Positions 13,790 to 63,973 of a stretch of 64,000 nt of DNA are shown one piece after another. Both the position numbers and the translations under genes were made by a program. This DNA comes from a virus: positions 58,970 through 122,969 of IMG/VR virus record IMGVR_UViG_3300045538_000426; one strand, given 5' to 3'. The notes under the pieces are model-generated. The model saw nothing but the letters and a program-made list of their open reading frames with translations. It was not told where the DNA came from and searched no databases. Position 1 is the first letter of the stretch; every line of letters begins with the position of its first letter.

Positions 13790-16700
13790 ATGTCACTTAA
13801 CAAAACAGACCTGGCCTTTAAGAAGCTGATAAACCGTCAGTTTACTACACCAAATCGTGCGTTCTATCAAGAGGTCGGTGCTAATACTCTTGAGATAGAT
13901 TCTGGGATGGTTTATACAAGCCCGATACCCACCTCAAGGGCCGAGGCTATATCCGCGAGTGTGGTGAGAGTAGTAAAATGTGCATTAACTAAAGATTACA
14001 GTGGAACCGTATCCACTTCATCTTACTATATGATTTCCGGCAGCGGATACTCTGTAGACGCAAGCAACTATAACGCTAATTTCACATCATTGGGCGCTAA
14101 CTTCTTCGTGATAAGTAGTTCATACGTTCAGAGGAATTTTTTAAGTGAAAAATACGGAAGTCAATATGCCGTGGAAGTGAGAGATAGTTCCGGTACACAA
14201 CTGTCATCGGATTCTTCTATAAATTGGTATTTCGACTACAAAAGTGGTGTGTTACACGTAGCTGACCCGTCACCGTCGACTTTGCCGTATTCTATAACAG
14301 CGTCTCAATACATTGGTTCGTTTTTGAGTGACTCGTCGCTGAACGGTAACGTAGGTACTCCCGAAATGTACGGAGCGGTTGGAGACGGAACCACTGATGA
14401 TTTCTTGGCATTTAAGCATGCTTTGGTGAGTCATAGTATAGTAGAATTGGGTGCTAAGACTTACGCCGTCCGTGGTTACATCGGTATGCCTTCTAACAGA
14501 TCCCTCGTTGGAAAAGGAAAGGATAGATCTGTAATTAAATTGATGGATAATTCACCGTATGGATATGGTTCACAGATATATGTGATTCAAAACACGGTGA
14601 TGCAAGATGATGTTTATTGGACCGGTTCTTCGGTAGGAACATCCACCGGAACAGGATCAATCGTGGTCGACTACAGAGACACGTCTGTAAGAGATCAATC
14701 ACCGTCAAGTCCATATTACCAACAGTCACAGGCACAAGCTTTTGCTGGTATGGGTTACTGGCAACATGACACGAGTGTAGCGAAAATCGGCGCACGTAGA
14801 AACGTTTTGATCGAAGGATTGACGGTCGATTGTAATTTTGATTATCAGGCTAGACACGGAAGCATAAATCATTCCGACAACCCATATTCGGCGTCCAGAG
14901 TCGCGGGTGGATATTATTACATACCGGATTACAGAGAAAGAGTCCGCCCTACCATCCACGCTATAGTGTTGAATGGAGAGAATATCGTAGTCAAGGATGT
15001 CAAAATTGTAAATTATGGATACGGCGTGGCTTATGCTACATCGGGCCCACTGAACTACGCGGACTCAGCCACGTTGCCGGTTTATAACGAAAACTTTCCG
15101 CTTTTGATAAATGGTGACATCAGTGTAGATTACACGTCTTCAACTCACCACCGTCCATCGGATCAAGCAGGCCTTTCGCTTTTCCGTGGAAACTACGCTA
15201 TTGATTGCGAAGTTTTGGATATTGCTAATGTAAATTTGATGAATCCGTTCTCGAATACAACGGCCATCTATGTAACAAATCAATCGTTGAACACCAGCAA
15301 TGGACAAAGCAGTTTTTCTTCCGAGGGTGGAATTTTCAATTGCGTGGTCGATCCTGGTCGCAGAATAAAGACTCCGACTGCGAGTTTGTGGAGTGGTTCT
15401 TATTTGGATAGTTATAGTTACGTAAGTTCAAGTTTAAAACAATCCGCAGCAACTTTAGCCGAGTGGTTGTATACATCACAGGGATCTTTGACTGGATCGA
15501 ATGGAGATATAGCTATATCAGAGGGTTCTCCTGCGGGAGCTTACACCTCACATATGAGGAAGGTGAGTGGAAGTTGGAAACCTATTGGATCTGGTTACGC
15601 TGTTCAGGAACATTATGTCCATGCATTCTCCGGATACAGAGTGTTTAATAGCTTAGCGAGAAATGCGGAGACAGGATTTTATCTGGATAGTTGGAGAAAC
15701 AACGCGTTCGTTGAAAACAATCAGTTCGTCGACGTTTCGAGTGGATTTAGAACCGTGGTATCTGACATCATATTGACATCCAGTTATAAAAACGTAGTCA
15801 TTAAAGATAATTATGTTAAATTGACTGATCAGAGCAGAGCTTATGTCTATGGTCACGGTGCAATATTCTATGGAGCCGGCATGGCAACAGCAGATGGTTC
15901 TTCGTTAAGACACATAGATAATTTGACGATTGAAAACAATTTATTCGAATTGCCGATATCCGGAAGCACAGACGTATATGGTTCAGGTAATGTGGTGTTT
16001 AGGACGTATCCGAGATACGCTGGAATTTGGTTTGGTTCGGAAACCTCACTTTCCGGTTCATCACAACGGAAACATCGTTCGGTTTCTGTAAAAAACAACC
16101 ATTTCTCAAACTGGAATCCGGTCAGGTCTCGACTCGAATCTACTGAAGCGTTTGGGTATAATTTACCAATTTGGTTCGCATACAGCACGTCTTCATTAGA
16201 AGCTGATATAGATGACCCGGCAGCAGGACCGTTTCCATTGTCGATAAACAAGTTCAAGACGAATTTTTTACCTAACTATAACATTTCGGAAAACACCTAT
16301 AGTGATGCAATTTATCCAGCTACATCGTCTCTGGTCCCAATCATCGTTTCGCTGCAAGGCAACGGTAATACATTTTATTATCCAATTGATCAAGTAAGCA
16401 AGCTTGCCACTTTTACCGCGACGAGTGGAAGTATAGGAATATTATTTGCAACCGGAAGTTTATATGGAACAGCGAGTTATTCTCTGAATGGAAGCGGCGG
16501 TTCCTCAACCGGATTCCAACCTTGGTCGTCCGGTTCAATGACAATTGAAATGGACGGTTCGGGGAACCTCCAAGATGAAGATGGAAACCCAATTGAATCG
16601 GAAGAATCCTCCTCTTTCATAACCTATGCCGGATCTGTATCTATCGGAACGACCGCTTCGGCAGCTGGATATTCATTGTATGTAAGTCGTTCAATTAAAA

Positions 16701-36179: not shown

Positions 36180-36589
36180 TTTTGTGAAAATTCAACGTAA
36201 CCCGCTTTTTTCAACACTGACAAGGCTTTCGCTGGACTTTTGTCCACTATCCGAAGTCCCCGTTTATCTCTTTTAGCGGTAGGTGAGTGATATTCATAGA
36301 CGCTTTCACAAGTCTCCACGAAATTATCTGGTATTAACTTTTGGAATTCTCCATATGGGATTCCCGAATTGTAATAGAAATCAAAAAACTTCCCATCTTT
36401 TACAATACCTAACATGAAGTTCGGTCCATATGTCAAGTCTTCGTCATCAACTATTACTGCACAGGTTAGTTTCTTAGACTTAATTCGTTTTCTTATAGTA
36501 TCTAAAGAATTTTCGTTCTTATGTTCGCCCCTACGAGTAAGTTCGGCCAGTAGTTGTTCCGTGGGTGTGGATTCTAAATCAGACTTCAT
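36176..36589 (-). CDS. Hypothetical protein, 137 aa
   Basis: N-terminal TPTEQLLAELTRRGE is a short helical motif common at the start of small phage proteins. It is followed by an alpha/beta domain (CAVIVDDEDLTYGPNFMLG). Function unknown. Overlaps the dCMP deaminase gene by 11 nt. Confidence 0.55.
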   Translation of the reverse strand: MKSDLESTPTEQLLAELTRRGEHKNENSLDTIRKRIKSKKLTCAVIVDDEDLTYGPNFMLGIVKDGKFFDFYYNSGIPYGEFQKLIPDNFVETCESVYEYHSPTAKRDKRGLRIVDKSPAKALSVLKKAGYVEFSQK

Positions 36590-37103
36590 AAATATCCCCG
36601 TTAATCATAGTTTTTACTCCCAATTTTCCAGAAAATATTCTGACGTTTACATGTGATTCGTATATCATAATATCACTTCGTTGACCGCTTTCCGTCCATT
36701 TGTCTCGTGTAATTCCCACCGATACATCGTGTTCCCATCCTTCGTGTAGAACAATCTCCTTTATTCCTGATTGGATTATAGCACGAGTACAATCGCTGCA
36801 TGGAAGTCCTTGTGTGTATAACACGGTTCCTAATGTAGAAATTCCGTTGCGGGCACAATGAAAGATGCAATTACGTTCTGCGTGTTCTGACCAGAAGTAT
36901 TTCTCTGGCCTTTCATGACGTTCAGGTATATCGTCAATTATTCCTCGACAGAACCCATTATACCCTTCGCTTATAACTGAATTGTCCCTCACCAATACTG
37001 CTCCGACTTTTGTCTTCTTGTCTTTGCTCTTTGATGCTATCAAATAGACGTGTCGCATGAAGAGTTCGTCCCAACTAGGCGCTGGCCATTCAGAATGGAC
37101 CAT
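36579..37103 (-). CDS. Deoxycytidylate deaminase-like protein
   Basis: 174 aa. The zinc-dependent CDA fold shows SKDKKTKVGAVLV, the catalytic HAE in SEHAERNCIF near residue 75, and PCSDCTRAII near residue 100 supplying the two zinc-binding Cys. The length and the GYNGFCRGI loop fit dCMP deaminases. It would make dUMP for the ThyA encoded 4 kb downstream. It begins within the end of the 56-aa gene (14-nt overlap). Confidence 0.88.
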   Translation of the reverse strand: MVHSEWPAPSWDELFMRHVYLIASKSKDKKTKVGAVLVRDNSVISEGYNGFCRGIIDDIPERHERPEKYFWSEHAERNCIFHCARNGISTLGTVLYTQGLPCSDCTRAIIQSGIKEIVLHEGWEHDVSVGITRDKWTESGQRSDIMIYESHVNVRIFSGKLGVKTMINGDIYEV

Positions 37104-51276: not shown

Positions 51277-51352
51277 CGGGGTATAATGTCAATGGTAGAC
51301 GGTCTGGTCCGGAGCCAGAAGGTTGCGAGTTCAAGTCCCGCTACCCCGACCA
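51277..51352 (+). tRNA. tRNA, probable Pro(CGG)
   Basis: Acceptor CGGGGTA/TACCCCG, anticodon arm TCTGG-TCCGGAG-CCAGA, T-arm GCGAG.. with TTCAAGT, CCA encoded. C at position 33 is odd. A one-base shift would read CCG (Arg). Confidence 0.65.
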
Positions 51353-53990: not shown

Positions 53991-54512
53991 ATGAATGTAA
54001 GAGATCATTTGAAGGATTTGAGTGTAGATGCAATCAAGAACTACTGTTCGGAAAATTGTGTCGATGCAGCGGTGGCAATGATGCACACTGAAGGTGATTT
54101 CAATCTTTCTAACGTATTTCGAACAACGAACTTCTTTGGAATTCGAGAGGCTTATTATATCGCAGGTCAGAAGCAGTGGGATAGACGCGGAGCAGTTGGT
54201 GTCCACCATTATACACCTGTCAATTACTGCAAGACGGTGGAGGATTTTTGGGCAATAATCACAGAAAAGGGTTATACCCCGGTGGCCATTGAGAATAACA
54301 CTAATTTCGATTGTCAGAACATTTTTACTTATACTTGGCCGGAGAAGCCAGTCATTATTTTAGGAGAAGAACAGACGGGTATTCCCACTGAAGTCTTGAC
54401 TAACTGCAAGAGTGTGGTTACAATTCCCGCGTTCGGTTCAGTCCGTTCTCTTAATGTGGGTAGTGCAGCAGCAATTGCTATTGCAATGTATAGGAATCAA
54501 ATTGGAAGGTAA
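53991..54512 (+). CDS. TrmH/SpoU-type RNA 2'-O-methyltransferase
   Basis: 173 aa SPOUT enzyme: NLSNVFRTTNFFGI (motif 1, catalytic Arg), IILGEEQTGIP (motif 2) and IPAFGSVRSLNVGSAAAIAIAMY (motif 3, in two parts) bind SAM in the trefoil knot. The size is that of a minimal TrmH without extra RNA-binding domains. Its place in the tRNA array suggests it methylates phage or host tRNA (for example Gm18). Its 3' end overlaps tRNA-Ser(GGA) by 9 nt. Confidence 0.88.
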   Translation: MNVRDHLKDLSVDAIKNYCSENCVDAAVAMMHTEGDFNLSNVFRTTNFFGIREAYYIAGQKQWDRRGAVGVHHYTPVNYCKTVEDFWAIITEKGYTPVAIENNTNFDCQNIFTYTWPEKPVIILGEEQTGIPTEVLTNCKSVVTIPAFGSVRSLNVGSAAAIAIAMYRNQIGR

Positions 54513-54589
54513 AACCGATAGGTTTGGTCAGTGATTGGAAATCACTTGGGCGCCTAAAAAACGCTGAGTTTCGAATACTCTGCCTTCCG
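54504..54589 (+). tRNA. tRNA-Ser(GGA)
   Basis: Acceptor GGAAGGT/GCCTTCC, anticodon arm AGTGA-TTGGAAA-TCACT, long variable arm, T-loop TTCGAAT, discriminator G. It starts inside the last codons of the methyltransferase gene. Confidence 0.87.
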
Positions 54590-54595
54590 CATCAT

Positions 54596-54814
54596 TCACT
54601 TCATTATCGAAATCATGTGAGTTCCGGTCAATGAAGGAGTGTAATAATTGTTTGTATTTCCACGTTTCTCATACAGTGGAATTGTCCGATTGCCGTCCTT
54701 GTCAGTATAACCTTTCCGTATAAGTTTATAATCTTCATTATTTACGCGGACGTTATATGGGTCAGAACAAGCCGTTAGTAAAGCCAAAGTCAAGATATAA
54801 AACATGTTTCTCAT
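54596..54814 (-). CDS. Small lipoprotein, 72 aa
   Basis: MRNMFYILTLALLTAC is a lipoprotein signal (lipobox LLTAC). The mature part is polar (YNVRVNNEDYKLIRKG). It is divergent from the gene at 54860 and one of the few minus-strand genes here. Probably exposed at the outer membrane. Function unknown. Confidence 0.6.
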   Translation of the reverse strand: MRNMFYILTLALLTACSDPYNVRVNNEDYKLIRKGYTDKDGNRTIPLYEKRGNTNNYYTPSLTGTHMISIMK

Positions 54815-54825
54815 GACAATAACTA

Positions 54826-54853
54826 TTGAAGTAATGATTGAATGTGATAAGAT
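54826..54853 (+). promoter_or_regulatory. Sigma70-like promoter, leaderless geometry
   Basis: TTGAAG, 16 bp, TAAGAT, ending 6 nt before ATG 54860. Confidence 0.6.
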
Positions 54854-54859
54854 ATAAAC

Positions 54860-55369
54860 ATGCAAACATTTCTACCTCATGCGGATTTTTACGAATCGGC
54901 CAAGTGCCTAGACGACAAGCGTTTAGGAAAGCAACGAGTTGAAGGGTATCAGATTCTAAAATCCCTATCAATCGGGCCGTATCAGAGATTTCACGATAAT
55001 AGTTGGACAAGTTGTGATGAAACGACTTACAAGTTGTTAAAATCAATGAAGATAAAGAAATTGGTCAGAAAGACACCGTGGTATAATCACCCGGCCACAA
55101 AAATGTGGCGCGGCAACGAACGTAAGTTACGAGAGTATACCGAGGTTGTATGCAACGTGTGGGTCAGTCGTGGGTTTAAAGATACTATTGTAGAAAAACT
55201 CAAAAGTATTTCATGTCAATTTTCAAAAAATCTCTCATATCCCAGCTGGCTTGGAGATGTATCATTTCACGCGTCACATCGATCTAATTTGTTAAGAAAG
55301 AATAAAGGGTGGTATTCTAAGTTTAATTGGTCGGAACGAGACGACCTACCATATGTTTGGCCACAATAA
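54860..55369 (+). CDS. MSMEG_6728 / pyrimidine-dimer glycosylase-like protein
   Basis: 169 aa. MQTFLPHADFYESAKCLDDKRLGKQRVEGYQIL (in segments), HPATKMWRGNERKLREY and VWVSRGFKD match the family annotated as MSMEG_6728 or pyrimidine dimer glycosylase/endonuclease V-related. T4 DenV-like enzymes excise UV dimers. Whether this branch has that activity is not established. Confidence 0.7.
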   Translation: MQTFLPHADFYESAKCLDDKRLGKQRVEGYQILKSLSIGPYQRFHDNSWTSCDETTYKLLKSMKIKKLVRKTPWYNHPATKMWRGNERKLREYTEVVCNVWVSRGFKDTIVEKLKSISCQFSKNLSYPSWLGDVSFHASHRSNLLRKNKGWYSKFNWSERDDLPYVWPQ

Positions 55370-55415
55370 TGTAGTTTATCAACGGTGATTTCTAAAATCA
55401 AATATAGTTATTAAT

Positions 55416-55676
55416 ATGGTTGATAGAGATGGTATAAAACAACTCAGCGTCTATCTTGATCTGTGTGGTGAACGACAGGTTTTGCTCGAAACCGTCTGGT
55501 TGGCATTTCGTTATAAAGACACTCACAAGGGATGGGACGTAAATAAGTGCTTTGAAGAAGCTCTTTGGAATGTCATGCTTGCCGAAGCCAAACGTGAGGT
55601 TAAAGTTGACCTAAAAGCCACCGTGGATAAAATTAACAGTATTTCTTCAATGGGTGCTGTCAAGAAATCCGGTTGA
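55416..55676 (+). CDS. Hypothetical protein, 86 aa
   Basis: Helical protein starting MVDRDGIKQLSVYLDLC. A TATAGT box ends 7 nt before the ATG. Its stop lies inside the -35 region of the giant RNA promoter. No family recognised. Confidence 0.55.
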   Translation: MVDRDGIKQLSVYLDLCGERQVLLETVWLAFRYKDTHKGWDVNKCFEEALWNVMLAEAKREVKVDLKATVDKINSISSMGAVKKSG

Positions 55677-55700
55677 CAGTTTTAGAATCCGGTGTATAGT
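55673..55700 (+). promoter_or_regulatory. Promoter of giant structured RNA
   Basis: TTGACA, 16 bp, TATAGT, the best consensus match in the region, directly ahead of ~1 kb of noncoding structured sequence. Confidence 0.75.
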
Positions 55701-55706
55701 TATTTC

Positions 55707-56697
55707 AAGGTTAGTTGAGTGTAAGCGAAAATCCTTAAATTAAAAACTCGACGGTGTGATAAATACCTAAAGTTATCCGTTTGCCAGTAACGACAATGCA
55801 GCAAGATTTGTGTGGTATTGACTTGACCACACCTTTTTATCGAATTTATGTCAAAATTCGACGCTTTGTAGATTGTTCTTTGTAGTAAGTAAAATTTGGG
55901 GGCCTGACCCCGTGAGATAACCCGTCGTAAGGCGGTAAAAGCAGAAACTCCCTAACGAGACTGCGCCGTAGCAATACGGACACTCAGGCAACTGACAAGA
56001 TCAGTGTCTTTCACTCAAAAGGTGGAAGTATGTCTGAAGCTGGATTGGGAAATGGTGACTGAGGGTAACACTGTAAGTCATCTACTAACGGCACCGCCGA
56101 GCTCTACCAGTTCCTTAACGGGAACAGCCAAGAATAAGATCTAAGTCAAACAAATAGATACAAGCCCGCAAGCAAGTGTTTATCTGTAGAAAGATAGAAA
56201 GTGGCCAGGGTAACCAGGACATAATCTTGAAATTCGGTGAAGTATCCGCAAGAGAAACACAAATGGTGTGTGGTATATTGGTTCCCAAAAGGAATTGATG
56301 TCACAAGTAACGCACGTCATTGTTAGGTGCATATTATATCCTTGGTAGATATTACATATTATACAAAAAGCAAAGTCGTTACTTGTGTTCGTCGAAAAGA
56401 ACGTAACTCTGAGGCCGTAAGGTAACTCAGACAACGAAGCGCTCGCAAGGTGTTAGTTGTTGATCCGAGTTTGGACGTGGTCCGCAAGACCTAATTGCTC
56501 GCAAGGCAACCGTTTGAATAGAGGTTGATTAGATGAACATTAAAGATGAAAAGCCTCATCTCTAAAAAGGCCGTTCTGTCAAATACAGACATAAACCGTA
56601 AGGTTGTGGATGTGGATATATCGGGAAAGCAGCCCGCAAGGTTGTAATAATCCGATTAAAGGTTGACACGAAACACTGTAGTCTCAGGTTTCATTTT
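55707..56697 (+). ncRNA. Giant structured noncoding RNA (GOLLD/ROOL-like candidate)
   Basis: About 990 nt without any convincing reading frame on either strand. There are at least nine hairpins capped by GNRA tetraloops within stems such as CCGTC-GTAA-GGCGG (~55922), GCCC-GCAA-GC (~56163), CTGAGGCC-GTAA-GG (~56409), CTC-GCAA-GG (~56440, ~56500), CC-GTAA-GG (~56598) and CCC-GCAA-GG (~56632). It has its own strong promoter and ends near a GAAAC...GTTTC hairpin followed by T/A residues. The size, ornate GNRA-rich helices and place next to phage tRNAs match the known behaviour of GOLLD and ROOL RNAs. Family membership cannot be tested by eye. Confidence 0.7.
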
Positions 56698-56728
56698 AAA
56701 AATTAGTCTCTTTTAGGGTTTAAAACAC

Positions 56729-56736
56729 TATTTATA
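56729..56736 (+). promoter_or_regulatory. TATTTATA box before HNH gene
   Basis: TATTTATA lies 20 nt before ATG 56757, after the end of the structured RNA. Here the leader would be ~14 nt. Confidence 0.4.
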
Positions 56737-56756
56737 GTTAAAGGAACATTAAACCA

Positions 56757-57164
56757 ATGCCAAACGTATATAGTATTAAAACATGTATAAATTGTGGAAT
56801 CTCTAAGAGAAGTAATGGAAAAAAGTTTTGTGGACCGAAGTGTCAACATGATTTCAATTACAAAGAAAAGATAAAATTGTGGTTAGACGGAAAGCACGAT
56901 GGGATGCGGGGAAAAACATCCACGGCACATTGGATTAAAAGATATATCACCGAAGTACGTGGACATCAATGTGAATGTTGTAAAATTAAAGAGTGGATGG
57001 ATAGGTCGATATCTTTAGATTTAGAACATAAAGACGGAAATTTTAAAAACAATAAAATTGACAATCTTGGTCTAATTTGTCCGAACTGTCACAGTCAGAC
57101 GGATACATATAAAGGTAGAAACAAAAAAGGAAGGCCTCGTTCTAAGTATTATAGAGGATTGTAA
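56757..57164 (+). CDS. HNH endonuclease
   Basis: 135 aa. The N-terminal zinc finger is CINCGISKRSN ... FCGPKC. The HNH core is CECCKIKEWMD, LDLEHKDGNFKNNKIDNL and LICPNCHSQTDTY, with catalytic His and Asn present. A basic tail follows. It ends 1 nt before tRNA-Ser(TGA), consistent with a homing endonuclease targeting the tRNA region. Confidence 0.88.
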   Translation: MPNVYSIKTCINCGISKRSNGKKFCGPKCQHDFNYKEKIKLWLDGKHDGMRGKTSTAHWIKRYITEVRGHQCECCKIKEWMDRSISLDLEHKDGNFKNNKIDNLGLICPNCHSQTDTYKGRNKKGRPRSKYYRGL

Positions 57165-57165
57165 T

Positions 57166-57252
57166 GGATAGGTGGCTGAGTGGATTAAAGCGGTGCTCTT
57201 GAAAAGCACAGGGGCCTAAAAACCCCCGGGGGTTCGAATCCCTCTCTATCCT
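57166..57252 (+). tRNA. tRNA-Ser(TGA)
   Basis: Acceptor GGATAGG/TCTATCC, anticodon arm GTGCT-CTTGAAA-AGCAC, long variable arm, T-arm GGGGG with TTCGAAT. Confidence 0.9.
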
Positions 57253-57279
57253 CCGTAGTTAGGTAAGTGGTGTAAATAT

Positions 57280-57368
57280 GGAACGGTGGCCGAGTCTGGC
57301 TTATGGCGGAAGTTTGCTAAACTTCTGAGGCCTAAAAACCTCCACAGGTTCGAATCCTGTTCGTTCCG
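57280..57368 (+). tRNA. tRNA-Ser(GCT)
   Basis: Acceptor GGAACGG/TCGTTCC, anticodon arm GAAGT-TTGCTAA-ACTTC, long variable arm, T-arm ACAGG/CCTGT, discriminator G. Last tRNA of the array. Confidence 0.9.
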
Positions 57369-57372
57369 CAGC

Positions 57373-57410
57373 AATTCCTCCGATGACGTAATTGTTATCG
57401 GAGGAATTTT
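57373..57410 (+). terminator. Terminator of tRNA array
   Basis: A 12-bp perfect stem AATTCCTCCGAT/ATCGGAGGAATT with a 12-nt loop and a T pair following closes the tRNA unit 5 nt after the last tRNA. Confidence 0.8.
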
Positions 57411-61487: not shown

Positions 61488-62456
61488 ATGAAAGAGAAAC
61501 AAGCAGCAGCTACAGCCGCGGGCGTCATCGTGGCAAGATTCCAACTCCACGAGCTTCACGATGCCCATCGTGATTTAATCCAAAGCGTCATTGAAAGACA
61601 CGAACGGGTTATTATCTTTTTGGGACTTTCGCCTCTAAAGAACACCCTCAACAACCCACTCGAATTCAGACAACGCAAGGCGATGATTGAAGAGGCGTTC
61701 AAGGATTGTGATAAGGCCCTTGAAATTCATTATGTCGATGATAACCGAGACGACCACGTTTGGTCGAAGAACCTCGATAAACAACTGGCTAAGTGGTTGA
61801 ACCCAGGACAGAACGCAACTCTTTATGGCAGTCGGGACAGTTTTCTAAAACGTTACCACGGAAAGTATCCGGTGTGTGAACTTGAGTCGGAAGTCTTCGT
61901 GTCGGCAAGTGAGATTCGTAAAAAAATCATAAACAACTATCCGCCAACCAAAGACTTTCGTGCCGGATTGATTGCCGGAACCGGTCTTAAATATCCAACC
62001 GCATATCAAACGGTGGACGTGGCCATTGTAAATGAAAAACGAGAGTTTTTGATGGTCAAGAAGCCGGGTGAAAAGAATTGGAGATTCGTCGGCGGGTTCA
62101 GCGATCCTCGTAGCAACAGTCTTGAGGAAGATGTTAAACGTGAGGTCCAAGAGGAAACCGGAGTTTCGATAGGTGAACCGGTTTATCTCGGAAGCACGTT
62201 GATTGACGACTGGCGATATCGTGGAGAAGTTGATAAAATCAAAACGGCGTTTTTTGTCACTAAATACGTTTTTGGTGCCCCCGTTGGCGCAGATGACGTT
62301 GAAATCGCTGGATGGGTAAATCTCAATGAATTGGTTGAGGGTAATATCATGCCAGAACACAAACCTTTGCTTGAAATTTTAGTCAAAAAGTTCATTCAAA
62401 ATGATGTCATGTGGAAACAATTTACATCGGTAGATGTTGATGGTCAGATGACTTGA
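61488..62456 (+). CDS. Bifunctional NMN adenylyltransferase / Nudix hydrolase
   Basis: 322 aa. Residues 1-~165 are a NadM-type nucleotidyltransferase: GVIVARFQLHELHDAHRDLI (HxGH-like region), GLSPLKNTLNNPLEFRQRKAMI and the ISSTxxR-like VSASEIRKKI. Residues ~185-310 are a Nudix domain with GGFSDPRSNSLEEDVKREVQEETG (Nudix box, in parts). It converts NMN and ATP to NAD. The Nudix half may hydrolyse ADP-ribose or related compounds. It pairs with the NAMPT gene just downstream. Confidence 0.92.
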   Translation: MKEKQAAATAAGVIVARFQLHELHDAHRDLIQSVIERHERVIIFLGLSPLKNTLNNPLEFRQRKAMIEEAFKDCDKALEIHYVDDNRDDHVWSKNLDKQLAKWLNPGQNATLYGSRDSFLKRYHGKYPVCELESEVFVSASEIRKKIINNYPPTKDFRAGLIAGTGLKYPTAYQTVDVAIVNEKREFLMVKKPGEKNWRFVGGFSDPRSNSLEEDVKREVQEETGVSIGEPVYLGSTLIDDWRYRGEVDKIKTAFFVTKYVFGAPVGADDVEIAGWVNLNELVEGNIMPEHKPLLEILVKKFIQNDVMWKQFTSVDVDGQMT

Positions 62457-62480
62457 CATTCGGAGAAAACCAGATACAGT
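62453..62480 (+). promoter_or_regulatory. Promoter of NAMPT gene
   Basis: TTGACA, 16 bp, TACAGT. A ~60-nt leader follows, with a small hairpin (CGACC...GGTCG) at ~62489-62509. Confidence 0.7.
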
Positions 62481-62542
62481 ATTGATACGACCTGATTTAG
62501 ATGGGTCGTCAAAAAACAAAATAGAAAGATACAGATAACTCT

Positions 62543-63973
62543 ATGAATAAAGAAAACCTCATATTCCTAACTGACAGCTATAAACTTGGCCATCATGGAA
62601 TGCTCCCCATCGGAACACAGAACCTCAGCAGTTACTTGGAAAGTCGTAAAGGCGCAAAATTCGCAGAAACCGTCTTCTTCGGTCTGCAAATTATATTGAA
62701 ACGTTACTTGGAGGGCGTCGTCGTCACCAGTGCCGATATTGAAGAAGCGGACGTGTTTTGTAAGGAACACTTCCTCGGTATGGATTATTTCAATCGAGCC
62801 ATGTGGCGACGTATTGTCGACGTTCACGGTGGAAAACTTCCCCTACGTATTATGGCCGTCAAAGAGGGCACGCCGGTCCCAATCGGAAATGTAATGATGA
62901 CCGTTGAGGCCACTGATGAAACTATCAATCCAGATACGGGAATTGCATATTTCGCTCCTCTCGTTAACGTGTTCGAGACTATCCTCACTCATGTCTGGCA
63001 CCCAAGTAACGTGGCCACTATTAGTCGTGATATCAAGAAACGATTAAAAAATGGATTTGATAAGACCGTGCCGAATGAGCTAGGTTGGTTGATTGAGTTT
63101 ATGCTCCACGACTTCGGATTTCGTGGTGTAAGCAGCGTCGAGTCGGCTGGGATGGGCGGTGCAGGTCACTTGGTAAACTTCAAGGGAACTGATACTCTCG
63201 TTGCAATCACTTACGCCCGTAGATACTACAACACTACAGAAATGGTGGCTTATAGTGTAGCGGCTACGGAACATAGTATTATGACCGCCGAAGGGCCCGC
63301 TGGTGAATTCAAAGTCGTAGAGAAATTAATTGCCAAATACCCAAATGGAATCCTATCGGTGGTCAGCGATAGTTATGACATTGAAAACGCGATTCGTGTC
63401 TATGGAACCGAATTGAAAGAAAAGATTCTCGGACGAAATGACGGAGCGAAGTTTGTTATTCGACCGGACAGCCCTCGTTTCGAGGGGGATACCCCAGCCG
63501 CTCAAATCCTTTGGATTGCTCAAGAATTAGAGAAGTATTTTGGTGCCACGACAAATGACAAGGGGTATAAGATGCTTCACCCGAAGGTAGGTATCATTTA
63601 TGGAGATGGACTCAGCCGTGATGAAATCGTCGAAGCCATCGACGTATTGATTGCCAATGGTTACGCGGCAAGCACTTGTGTATTCGGTATGGGTGGCGGA
63701 TTGCTCCAAAAGCATAACCGTGACACACAGAGAAACGCGTTCAAGTGTTCGGCGCAGAAACGTGGAGATGTGTGGATCGACATCTTCAAGGATCCGAAGG
63801 ACAAGACCAAAGCATCGAAGCGAGGTCGTCTTGCCCTTGTGTTCGAAAATGGTCAGTATAAGACCGTTGCGGCGAAAGACGCAAAAAACAATCTCTTGGA
63901 GGTTGTATTTGAGAATGGTGTAATCGTCAGGGATATGACTTGGAATGAAGTCCGTGACAACGCAAAAGTTTAA
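62543..63973 (+). CDS. nadV: Nicotinamide phosphoribosyltransferase
   Basis: 476 aa, the full length of NAMPT/NadV enzymes. Motifs: FLTDSYKLGHHGMLP at the N-terminus, LHDFGFRGVSSVESAGMGGAGHL near residue 190, VAATEHSIMTAEG near 240 (His/Glu region), SVVSDSYDIENAI near 275, FVIRPDSPRF near 305 and GDGLSRDEI near 350. It makes NMN from nicotinamide and PRPP. With the NMNAT before it, it forms a two-step NAD rebuilding route of the NARP2 type. Confidence 0.95.
   Translation: MNKENLIFLTDSYKLGHHGMLPIGTQNLSSYLESRKGAKFAETVFFGLQIILKRYLEGVVVTSADIEEADVFCKEHFLGMDYFNRAMWRRIVDVHGGKLPLRIMAVKEGTPVPIGNVMMTVEATDETINPDTGIAYFAPLVNVFETILTHVWHPSNVATISRDIKKRLKNGFDKTVPNELGWLIEFMLHDFGFRGVSSVESAGMGGAGHLVNFKGTDTLVAITYARRYYNTTEMVAYSVAATEHSIMTAEGPAGEFKVVEKLIAKYPNGILSVVSDSYDIENAIRVYGTELKEKILGRNDGAKFVIRPDSPRFEGDTPAAQILWIAQELEKYFGATTNDKGYKMLHPKVGIIYGDGLSRDEIVEAIDVLIANGYAASTCVFGMGGGLLQKHNRDTQRNAFKCSAQKRGDVWIDIFKDPKDKTKASKRGRLALVFENGQYKTVAAKDAKNNLLEVVFENGVIVRDMTWNEVRDNAKV

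What the first reader, a model, noticed from the sequence alone, without database searches (positions are those of the whole stretch)
55673..56697. Giant ornate noncoding RNA beside phage tRNAs
Roughly 1 kb has no usable reading frame but at least nine hairpins closed by GNRA tetraloops (GTAA or GCAA), a near-consensus promoter directly in front, and a hairpin plus T/A stretch at the end. Known giant phage RNAs (GOLLD, ROOL) share this size, tetraloop density and location next to tRNAs. The PVC-type host suggested here would extend their range, or this may be a new class.
Basis: partly seen in the sequence, partly recalled or inferred. Interest (0 to 1): 0.9.

Follow-up and report, generated by a model that had tools for sequence, protein, structure and literature searches.

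The report
Divergent GOLLD RNA in large phage
The roughly 1,000-base gene-free stretch encodes a full-length member of GOLLD, a known family of giant phage RNAs that build hollow RNA cages; it belongs to a divergent branch whose relatives carry a tRNA inside the RNA, which this one has lost.

Summary
The Rfam model matches window 56261-56690 over its whole length (216.9 bits, gathering score 150, E 5e-60). ROOL does not match. The structured RNA spans about 55873-56690 (818 nt): a divergent 5' domain plus the conserved 3' domain. A sigma-70-like promoter (11/12) lies about 170 nt upstream, and tRNA-Ser genes follow. I found about a dozen relatives of this branch in IMG/VR phage contigs, up to 365 kb. 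Across them the Rfam structure is supported by covariation (66 of 104 pairs change on both sides, 0/500 shuffles), and so is a predicted 5'-domain structure (59 of 110). In nearly all relatives the variable linker, which lies inside the cage in the solved GOLLD structure, holds a tRNA; the window and its closest relative keep only a remnant. In that relative GOLLD joins tRNA-Ser directly; in the window an HNH endonuclease gene sits between. The host is undetermined, so the PVC idea is unsupported. Most likely the RNA self-assembles into a hollow multimer; its role is unknown, and a tRNA or translation role is my inference. A new member of a known kind.

The parts
55673..55700 (+). sigma-70-type promoter TTGACA-N16-TATAGT
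   Evidence: 11 of 12; hexamers conserved and spacer diverged in G043; 9 of 10 subfamily members have a match of at least 10/12 within 300 nt upstream of the 5' domain, against 9% of window tiles
55701..55872 (+). 5' leader of about 170 nt, variable in sequence; possible H-type pseudoknot at its start (AAGG 55707-55710 with CCTT 55733-55736; GTTGAGT 55714-55720 with ACTCGAC 55746-55752)
   Evidence: read from the sequence; same arrangement visible in L176 and L209; not tested statistically
55873..56260 (+). GOLLD 5' (cap) domain, divergent type
   Evidence: aligned with 8 relatives; 59 of 110 predicted pairs with changes on both sides, 0/500 shuffles
56049..56196 (+). core of the 5' domain (model R1), with the GAGGGTAACACTGTAAG hairpin shared with ordinary GOLLD 5' domains
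   Evidence: R1 finds L216 and L214 (E 8e-13, 2e-9); in most of 22 ordinary GOLLD loci only this hairpin, at one fixed offset, with individually weak E 0.07-1
56261..56690 (+). GOLLD 3' domain, Rfam RF02032 positions 1-416
   Evidence: 216.9 bits, E 5.4e-60; 88 of 98 Rfam pairs standard in the window; covariation
56306..56383 (+). pseudoknot helix 56306-56311 with 56378-56383, closing the linker loop
   Evidence: all 6 pairs change on both sides somewhere, 98% of cells paired
56323..56365 (+). linker: remnant of a tRNA (5' acceptor strand and D arm; anticodon and T arms missing)
   Evidence: aligned with tRNA-bearing linkers of relatives; similarity beats nearly all shuffles for L206, L207, L209, L211, L215 and for none of 5 ordinary GOLLD linkers, but not for L181, L213, L214, L180
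56483..56487 (+). hairpin loop CGCAA, corresponding to L21a (self-complementary GC; predicted bridge B8)
   Evidence: mapping by Rfam position against env-38 nt 656-657; inference
56500..56504 (+). hairpin loop CGCAA, corresponding to L21b (predicted bridge B9)
   Evidence: central GC in 9 of 10 relatives, CG in L211; inference
56670..56697 (+). terminal hairpin GAAAC/GTTTC followed by ATTTT; conserved TGTARTCTCAG loop
   Evidence: the loop sequence was part of the search pattern that fetched most relatives
56757..57164 (+). HNH endonuclease ORF, 135 aa, absent at this place in relative G043
   Evidence: PHROG HNH endonuclease E 2e-23; in L178 GOLLD ends at 16359 and tRNA-Ser starts at 16360
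57166..57254 (+). tRNA-Ser(UGA)
57280..57369 (+). tRNA-Ser(GCU)

Best explanation
The stretch encodes a GOLLD RNA in the tRNA array of a large T4-like phage. Shown here: the 3' domain fits the Rfam GOLLD model; both domains are under selection for base pairing; a promoter-like site precedes the RNA in most relatives; tRNA-Ser genes follow it. Inferred from the solved structure of another GOLLD: the RNA self-assembles, probably as a 14-mer, into a hollow cage with the 5' domain as cap, the 3' domain as ring and the linker inside. Inferred from gene order: it is made from its own promoter, and its 3' end is set at the terminal hairpin or, as the closest relative suggests, by RNase P cutting at the adjacent tRNA-Ser. 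Function, low confidence (about 0.3): a chamber linked to phage tRNA supply or translation takeover. The tRNA held in the linker of relatives and the location in tRNA arrays point that way, but this lineage works without that tRNA, so it cannot be the whole function.
For: RF02032 full-length at 216.9 bits. Own-genome search: one copy, controls 0 of 14. Orthologue in G043, 88% identical over 1045 nt, in the same tRNA-array setting. Rfam-derived structure on 10 sequences: 85.9% of cells paired, 66 pairs with changes on both sides, 0/500 shuffles, slid controls 32-42%. 5' domain: 59 of 110 pairs, 0/500. Linker tRNAs in relatives. 14-mer cage, interior linker and L21a/L21b kissing loops: Kretsch et al. 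2025, PMC12286853.
Against: No transcript or particle was observed. The 5' domain is not found by a sequence profile of ordinary GOLLD 5' domains, and model R1 recovers only one shared hairpin there, so cap geometry and stoichiometry may differ from env-38. Ten of 98 Rfam pairs are non-standard in the window. The 5' structure was predicted from the same alignment it was counted on. The functional part rests on location and on relatives only.
Confidence: 0.88

Rival explanations
1. It is a new class of giant RNA that only resembles GOLLD in size and place.
For: The 5' domain has no BLASTN similarity to ordinary GOLLD 5' domains and no profile-HMM hit.
Against: Full-length 3' domain match far over the Rfam cut-off; one 5' hairpin shared at a fixed offset with ordinary GOLLD RNAs; similar domain lengths (388 + 430 nt here, 420 + 413 in env-38).
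Confidence: 0.03
2. It is a decayed GOLLD copy without function.
For: The linker tRNA is lost and 10 of 98 Rfam pairs are non-standard.
Against: 88% identity to G043 with compensatory changes, 96% identity in the 3' domain, conserved promoter hexamers, intact fold.
Confidence: 0.04
3. The cage acts as a tRNA chamber: it carries, protects or presents a tRNA-shaped cargo, for example against host tRNA-cutting defences.
For: tRNA fold in the linker of nearly all subfamily members; D- and T-stem pairs with changes on both sides; anticodons differ between relatives while the shape persists; location in tRNA arrays.
Against: The window and G043 lack it; none of 31 ordinary GOLLD loci carries a linker tRNA; Kretsch et al. 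note tRNAs only sometimes present.
Confidence: 0.25
4. The RNA acts on ribosomes or another host particle, as a hibernation-like or translation-takeover factor.
For: Kretsch et al. cite pull-down binding of GOLLD to ribosomes; an abundant large noncoding RNA of similar size is the top transcript of phage ICP1.
Against: Nothing at this locus points to it specifically; GOLLD was reported dispensable for phage production in one Lactobacillus brevis prophage (cited).
Confidence: 0.25

Closest known systems
GOLLD RNA, Rfam RF02032; cryo-EM structure of GOLLD env-38 (Kretsch et al. 2025, PMC12286853)
   Same: 3' domain over its full length, two-domain layout, about 820 nt against 833 nt, phage tRNA-array location, self-complementary L21a/L21b loops, variable linker
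   Different: 5' domain of a divergent type with only one detectable hairpin shared with ordinary GOLLD RNAs; about 170-nt leader; linker with a tRNA remnant; assembly untested
GOLLD of relative G043 (IMGVR_UViG_3300042197_004918, L178:15329-16359)
   Same: 88% identity over 1045 nt, promoter hexamers with one change, same tRNA remnant, same downstream tRNA-Ser pair
   Different: joined directly to tRNA-Ser(UGA), no HNH ORF; a different gene upstream
ROOL RNA
   Same: giant ornate phage RNA near tRNAs; also forms an RNA cage (8-mer)
   Different: no Rfam match in the window; sequence and fold unrelated to GOLLD

Membership tests
GOLLD (RF02032) | covariance-model score over the curated cut-off | tested here: met
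   216.9 bits against 150, model 1-416 complete
GOLLD (RF02032) | consensus secondary structure kept by compensatory changes | tested here: met
   66 of 104 pairs, 0/500 shuffles
GOLLD (RF02032) | a structured 5' domain upstream, total over about 800 nt | tested here: met
   55873-56260 with covariation; 818 nt in all
GOLLD (RF02032) | 5' domain homologous to that of ordinary GOLLD RNAs (env-38 type) | tested here: inconclusive
   no profile-HMM hit; one shared hairpin at fixed offset in most of 22 loci, weak E-values; env-38 itself was not compared
GOLLD (RF02032) | phage or prophage origin, often near tRNA genes | tested here: met
   20 tRNAs in the window; T4-like phage genes
GOLLD (RF02032) | self-complementary L21a and L21b loops (bridges B8, B9) | tested here: met
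   CGCAA in both loops; GC or CG centre in the aligned L21b loops; loop assignment by position is an inference
GOLLD (RF02032) | assembly into a closed 14-mer | not testable with these tools
   needs cryo-EM or mass photometry
GOLLD (RF02032) | expression rising during lysis | not testable with these tools
   no transcript data
ROOL | match to the Rfam ROOL model | tested here: not met
   no ROOL hit at gathering threshold nor at E up to 1 in 55400-57400
new RNA class | no match to a described family | tested here: not met

The most novel reading that the evidence does not exclude
A divergent branch of GOLLD in large and very large phages has a remodelled cap domain and keeps a tRNA fold inside the cage as cargo or bait, with changing anticodons; the window's lineage has shed that tRNA and kept the cage, which would separate cage function from tRNA cargo.
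Probability: 0.3. Interest if true: 0.62.

Novelty: new member of a known kind. Interest (0 to 1): 0.42.

Why it matters
GOLLD RNAs form some of the largest RNA-only cages known, yet their role is unknown. This locus and its relatives give a divergent set with clean covariation over both domains, a likely promoter and 3' boundary, and a natural contrast between close relatives with and without a tRNA in the linker. That contrast makes the question whether the cage exists for a tRNA cargo testable.

Tried and rejected
ROOL and all other Rfam families: no match beyond GOLLD and tRNAs over the gathering score. Coding: no frame. BLASTN of the RNA against 50,697 phage records: no match. Exact-pattern search of the 5' motif in GTDB genomes: none. 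Host by UvsX in GTDB genomes: none. Host by phage proteins: low identities to phages of unrelated hosts; Microcystis phage Mel-JY01 has no GOLLD. GOLLD in UvsX relatives: 1 of 46 records, but most are short fragments, so absence says little. A wholly new 5' domain was considered and dropped as a firm claim after the shared hairpin. Local folding energies alone were weak (z -0.5 to -2.5) and are not relied on.

Full report
Observation. The region 55673-56697 lacks a usable frame, is rich in C-GYAA-G motifs (nine, or ten with CGTGAG, against 1.6 per kb overall), has strict GNRA hairpins far above shuffles (4 against 0.19, maximum 3 in 1000), begins with an 11-of-12 sigma-70-like promoter and ends in a hairpin followed by ATTTT. 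Both flanks carry tRNA genes.

Identity. Rfam release 15 gives one answer: GOLLD, RF02032, window 56261-56690 on the + strand, 216.9 bits against a gathering score of 150, E 5.4e-60, model positions 1-416 complete (alignment). ROOL does not appear. The 416-position match corresponds to the conserved 3' half of GOLLD. Of its 98 pairs projected on the window, 88 are standard.

The genome. The window is 58970-122969 of a 122,969-base IMG/VR contig. The phage has UvsX, gp32-like and DnaB-like proteins, a tape measure protein, a ribonucleotide reductase and thymidylate synthase, so T4-like replication. UvsX relatives at 69-98% identity are common in IMG/VR but none was found in GTDB genome contigs. 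The closest isolated phage for UvsX and helicase is Microcystis phage Mel-JY01, at 51% and 44%, and it has no GOLLD. The host is therefore not known and the PVC suggestion has no support here.

Relatives. A consensus 3'-end pattern found 61 IMG/VR stretches, most of which carry GOLLD (35 of 50 records; 9 of the other 11). Most are an ordinary type whose 5' domains resemble each other and not the window's. G043, a 173.8-kb contig with UvsX 90% identical, has an orthologue 88% identical over 1045 nt. Patterns from the shared 5' domain found L181 and about ten more, in contigs up to 365 kb. These form the window's branch.

Boundaries. The 5' domain common to the branch starts near 55873 and is closed by a helix, UUCUUUG with CAAGAGAA, near 56247-56255. 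With the 3' domain this makes 818 nt, close to env-38 at 833 nt (420 + 413). The first 170 nt after the promoter are a leader of variable sequence. Nine of ten members have a promoter match of at least 10 of 12 within 300 nt upstream, against 59 of 636 window tiles; in seven of them the -10 hexamer ends 145-177 nt before the 5' domain. In G043 the promoter hexamers differ at one position while the spacer has diverged.

Covariation. With the structure taken from Rfam, independent of these sequences, plus one pseudoknot helix, 85.9% of cells pair on the MAFFT alignment of ten sequences and 66 of 104 pairs show changes on both sides; no shuffle of 500 reaches this and slid structures pair at 32-42%. 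The pseudoknot helix 56306-56311 with 56378-56383, which closes the linker, changes on both sides at all six pairs. For the 5' domain the structure was predicted from the alignment itself, a caution, but 59 of 110 pairs change on both sides, again beyond all shuffles. Shuffle counts are not probabilities for related sequences; the slid controls are the better guide.

The linker. ARAGORN or Rfam finds a tRNA inside the linker of L181 (Thr-UGU), L207 and L208 (Thr-UGU), L209 and L210 (Ile-UAU), L214 and L180 (Leu-UAG), L211 and L212 (unassigned), L206, L213 and L215 (Rfam only). D- and T-stem pairs change on both sides. The window and G043 keep the 5' acceptor strand and the D arm only. The similarity beats nearly all shuffles for five tRNA-bearing relatives and for none of five ordinary GOLLD linkers, though not for L181, L213, L214 or L180. 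Of 31 ordinary GOLLD loci none has a linker tRNA by ARAGORN. That GOLLD linkers sometimes hold tRNAs is known.

The 3' side. In G043 GOLLD ends at L178:16359 and tRNA-Ser(UGA) starts at 16360, so RNase P cleavage at the tRNA could form the RNA's 3' end. In the window an HNH endonuclease ORF lies between them. This reads as an insertion in the window's lineage; loss from G043 is not excluded.

How it works. From the solved structure (PMC12286853) a GOLLD RNA forms a closed 14-mer with the linker inside; two self-complementary loops, L21a and L21b, help join the half-shells. Both loops in the window are CGCAA with a central GC, and L211 has switched L21b to a central CG, the kind of switch reported for L21a. 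My loop assignment rests on position. I take cage formation as likely by homology. The purpose is unknown in the field. A link to tRNA supply or translation is suggested by location and by linker tRNAs, but the window's lineage shows that the covalent tRNA is dispensable.

Verdict. A new member, from a divergent branch, of a known family. The 5' domain differs enough that cap geometry could differ, which is the most interesting open point together with the tRNA loss.

Noticed in passing
L178:15027-15101 (G043); L207 about 803-878: tRNA with a CUA anticodon (amber-reading type, called Pyl by ARAGORN) upstream of GOLLD; possible stop-codon suppression in these phages.
   Followed up: no
window 51277-51349: tRNA found by Rfam (47 bits) but missed by ARAGORN; by eye the anticodon loop is TCCGGAG with C where U33 is usual.
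   Followed up: no
window 55707-55752; L176, L209, and another form in L181 and L211: Possible H-type pseudoknot at the very start of the GOLLD leader, with an A-rich loop; could protect the 5' end.
   Followed up: partly
L216 (G127), minus strand, about 1922-2214: GOLLD 3' domain split by about 290 extra bases, AT-rich, in the linker, where a tRNA 5' half is visible; an insertion or intron in the linker tRNA.
   Followed up: partly
L213 and L215 linkers: Two very similar GOLLD RNAs whose linker tRNAs differ in anticodon, read by eye as UCA (opal-reading) and UAU.
   Followed up: no
G009:C1:19736-20149 and 36280-36673: One phage contig with two GOLLD copies.
   Followed up: no
window 61488-63973: NUDIX plus cytidylyltransferase-like protein next to nicotinamide phosphoribosyltransferase: probably an NAD salvage pair.
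   Followed up: no
window 53991-55369: SpoU-type RNA methylase and a pyrimidine dimer glycosylase just upstream of GOLLD inside the tRNA array.
   Followed up: no
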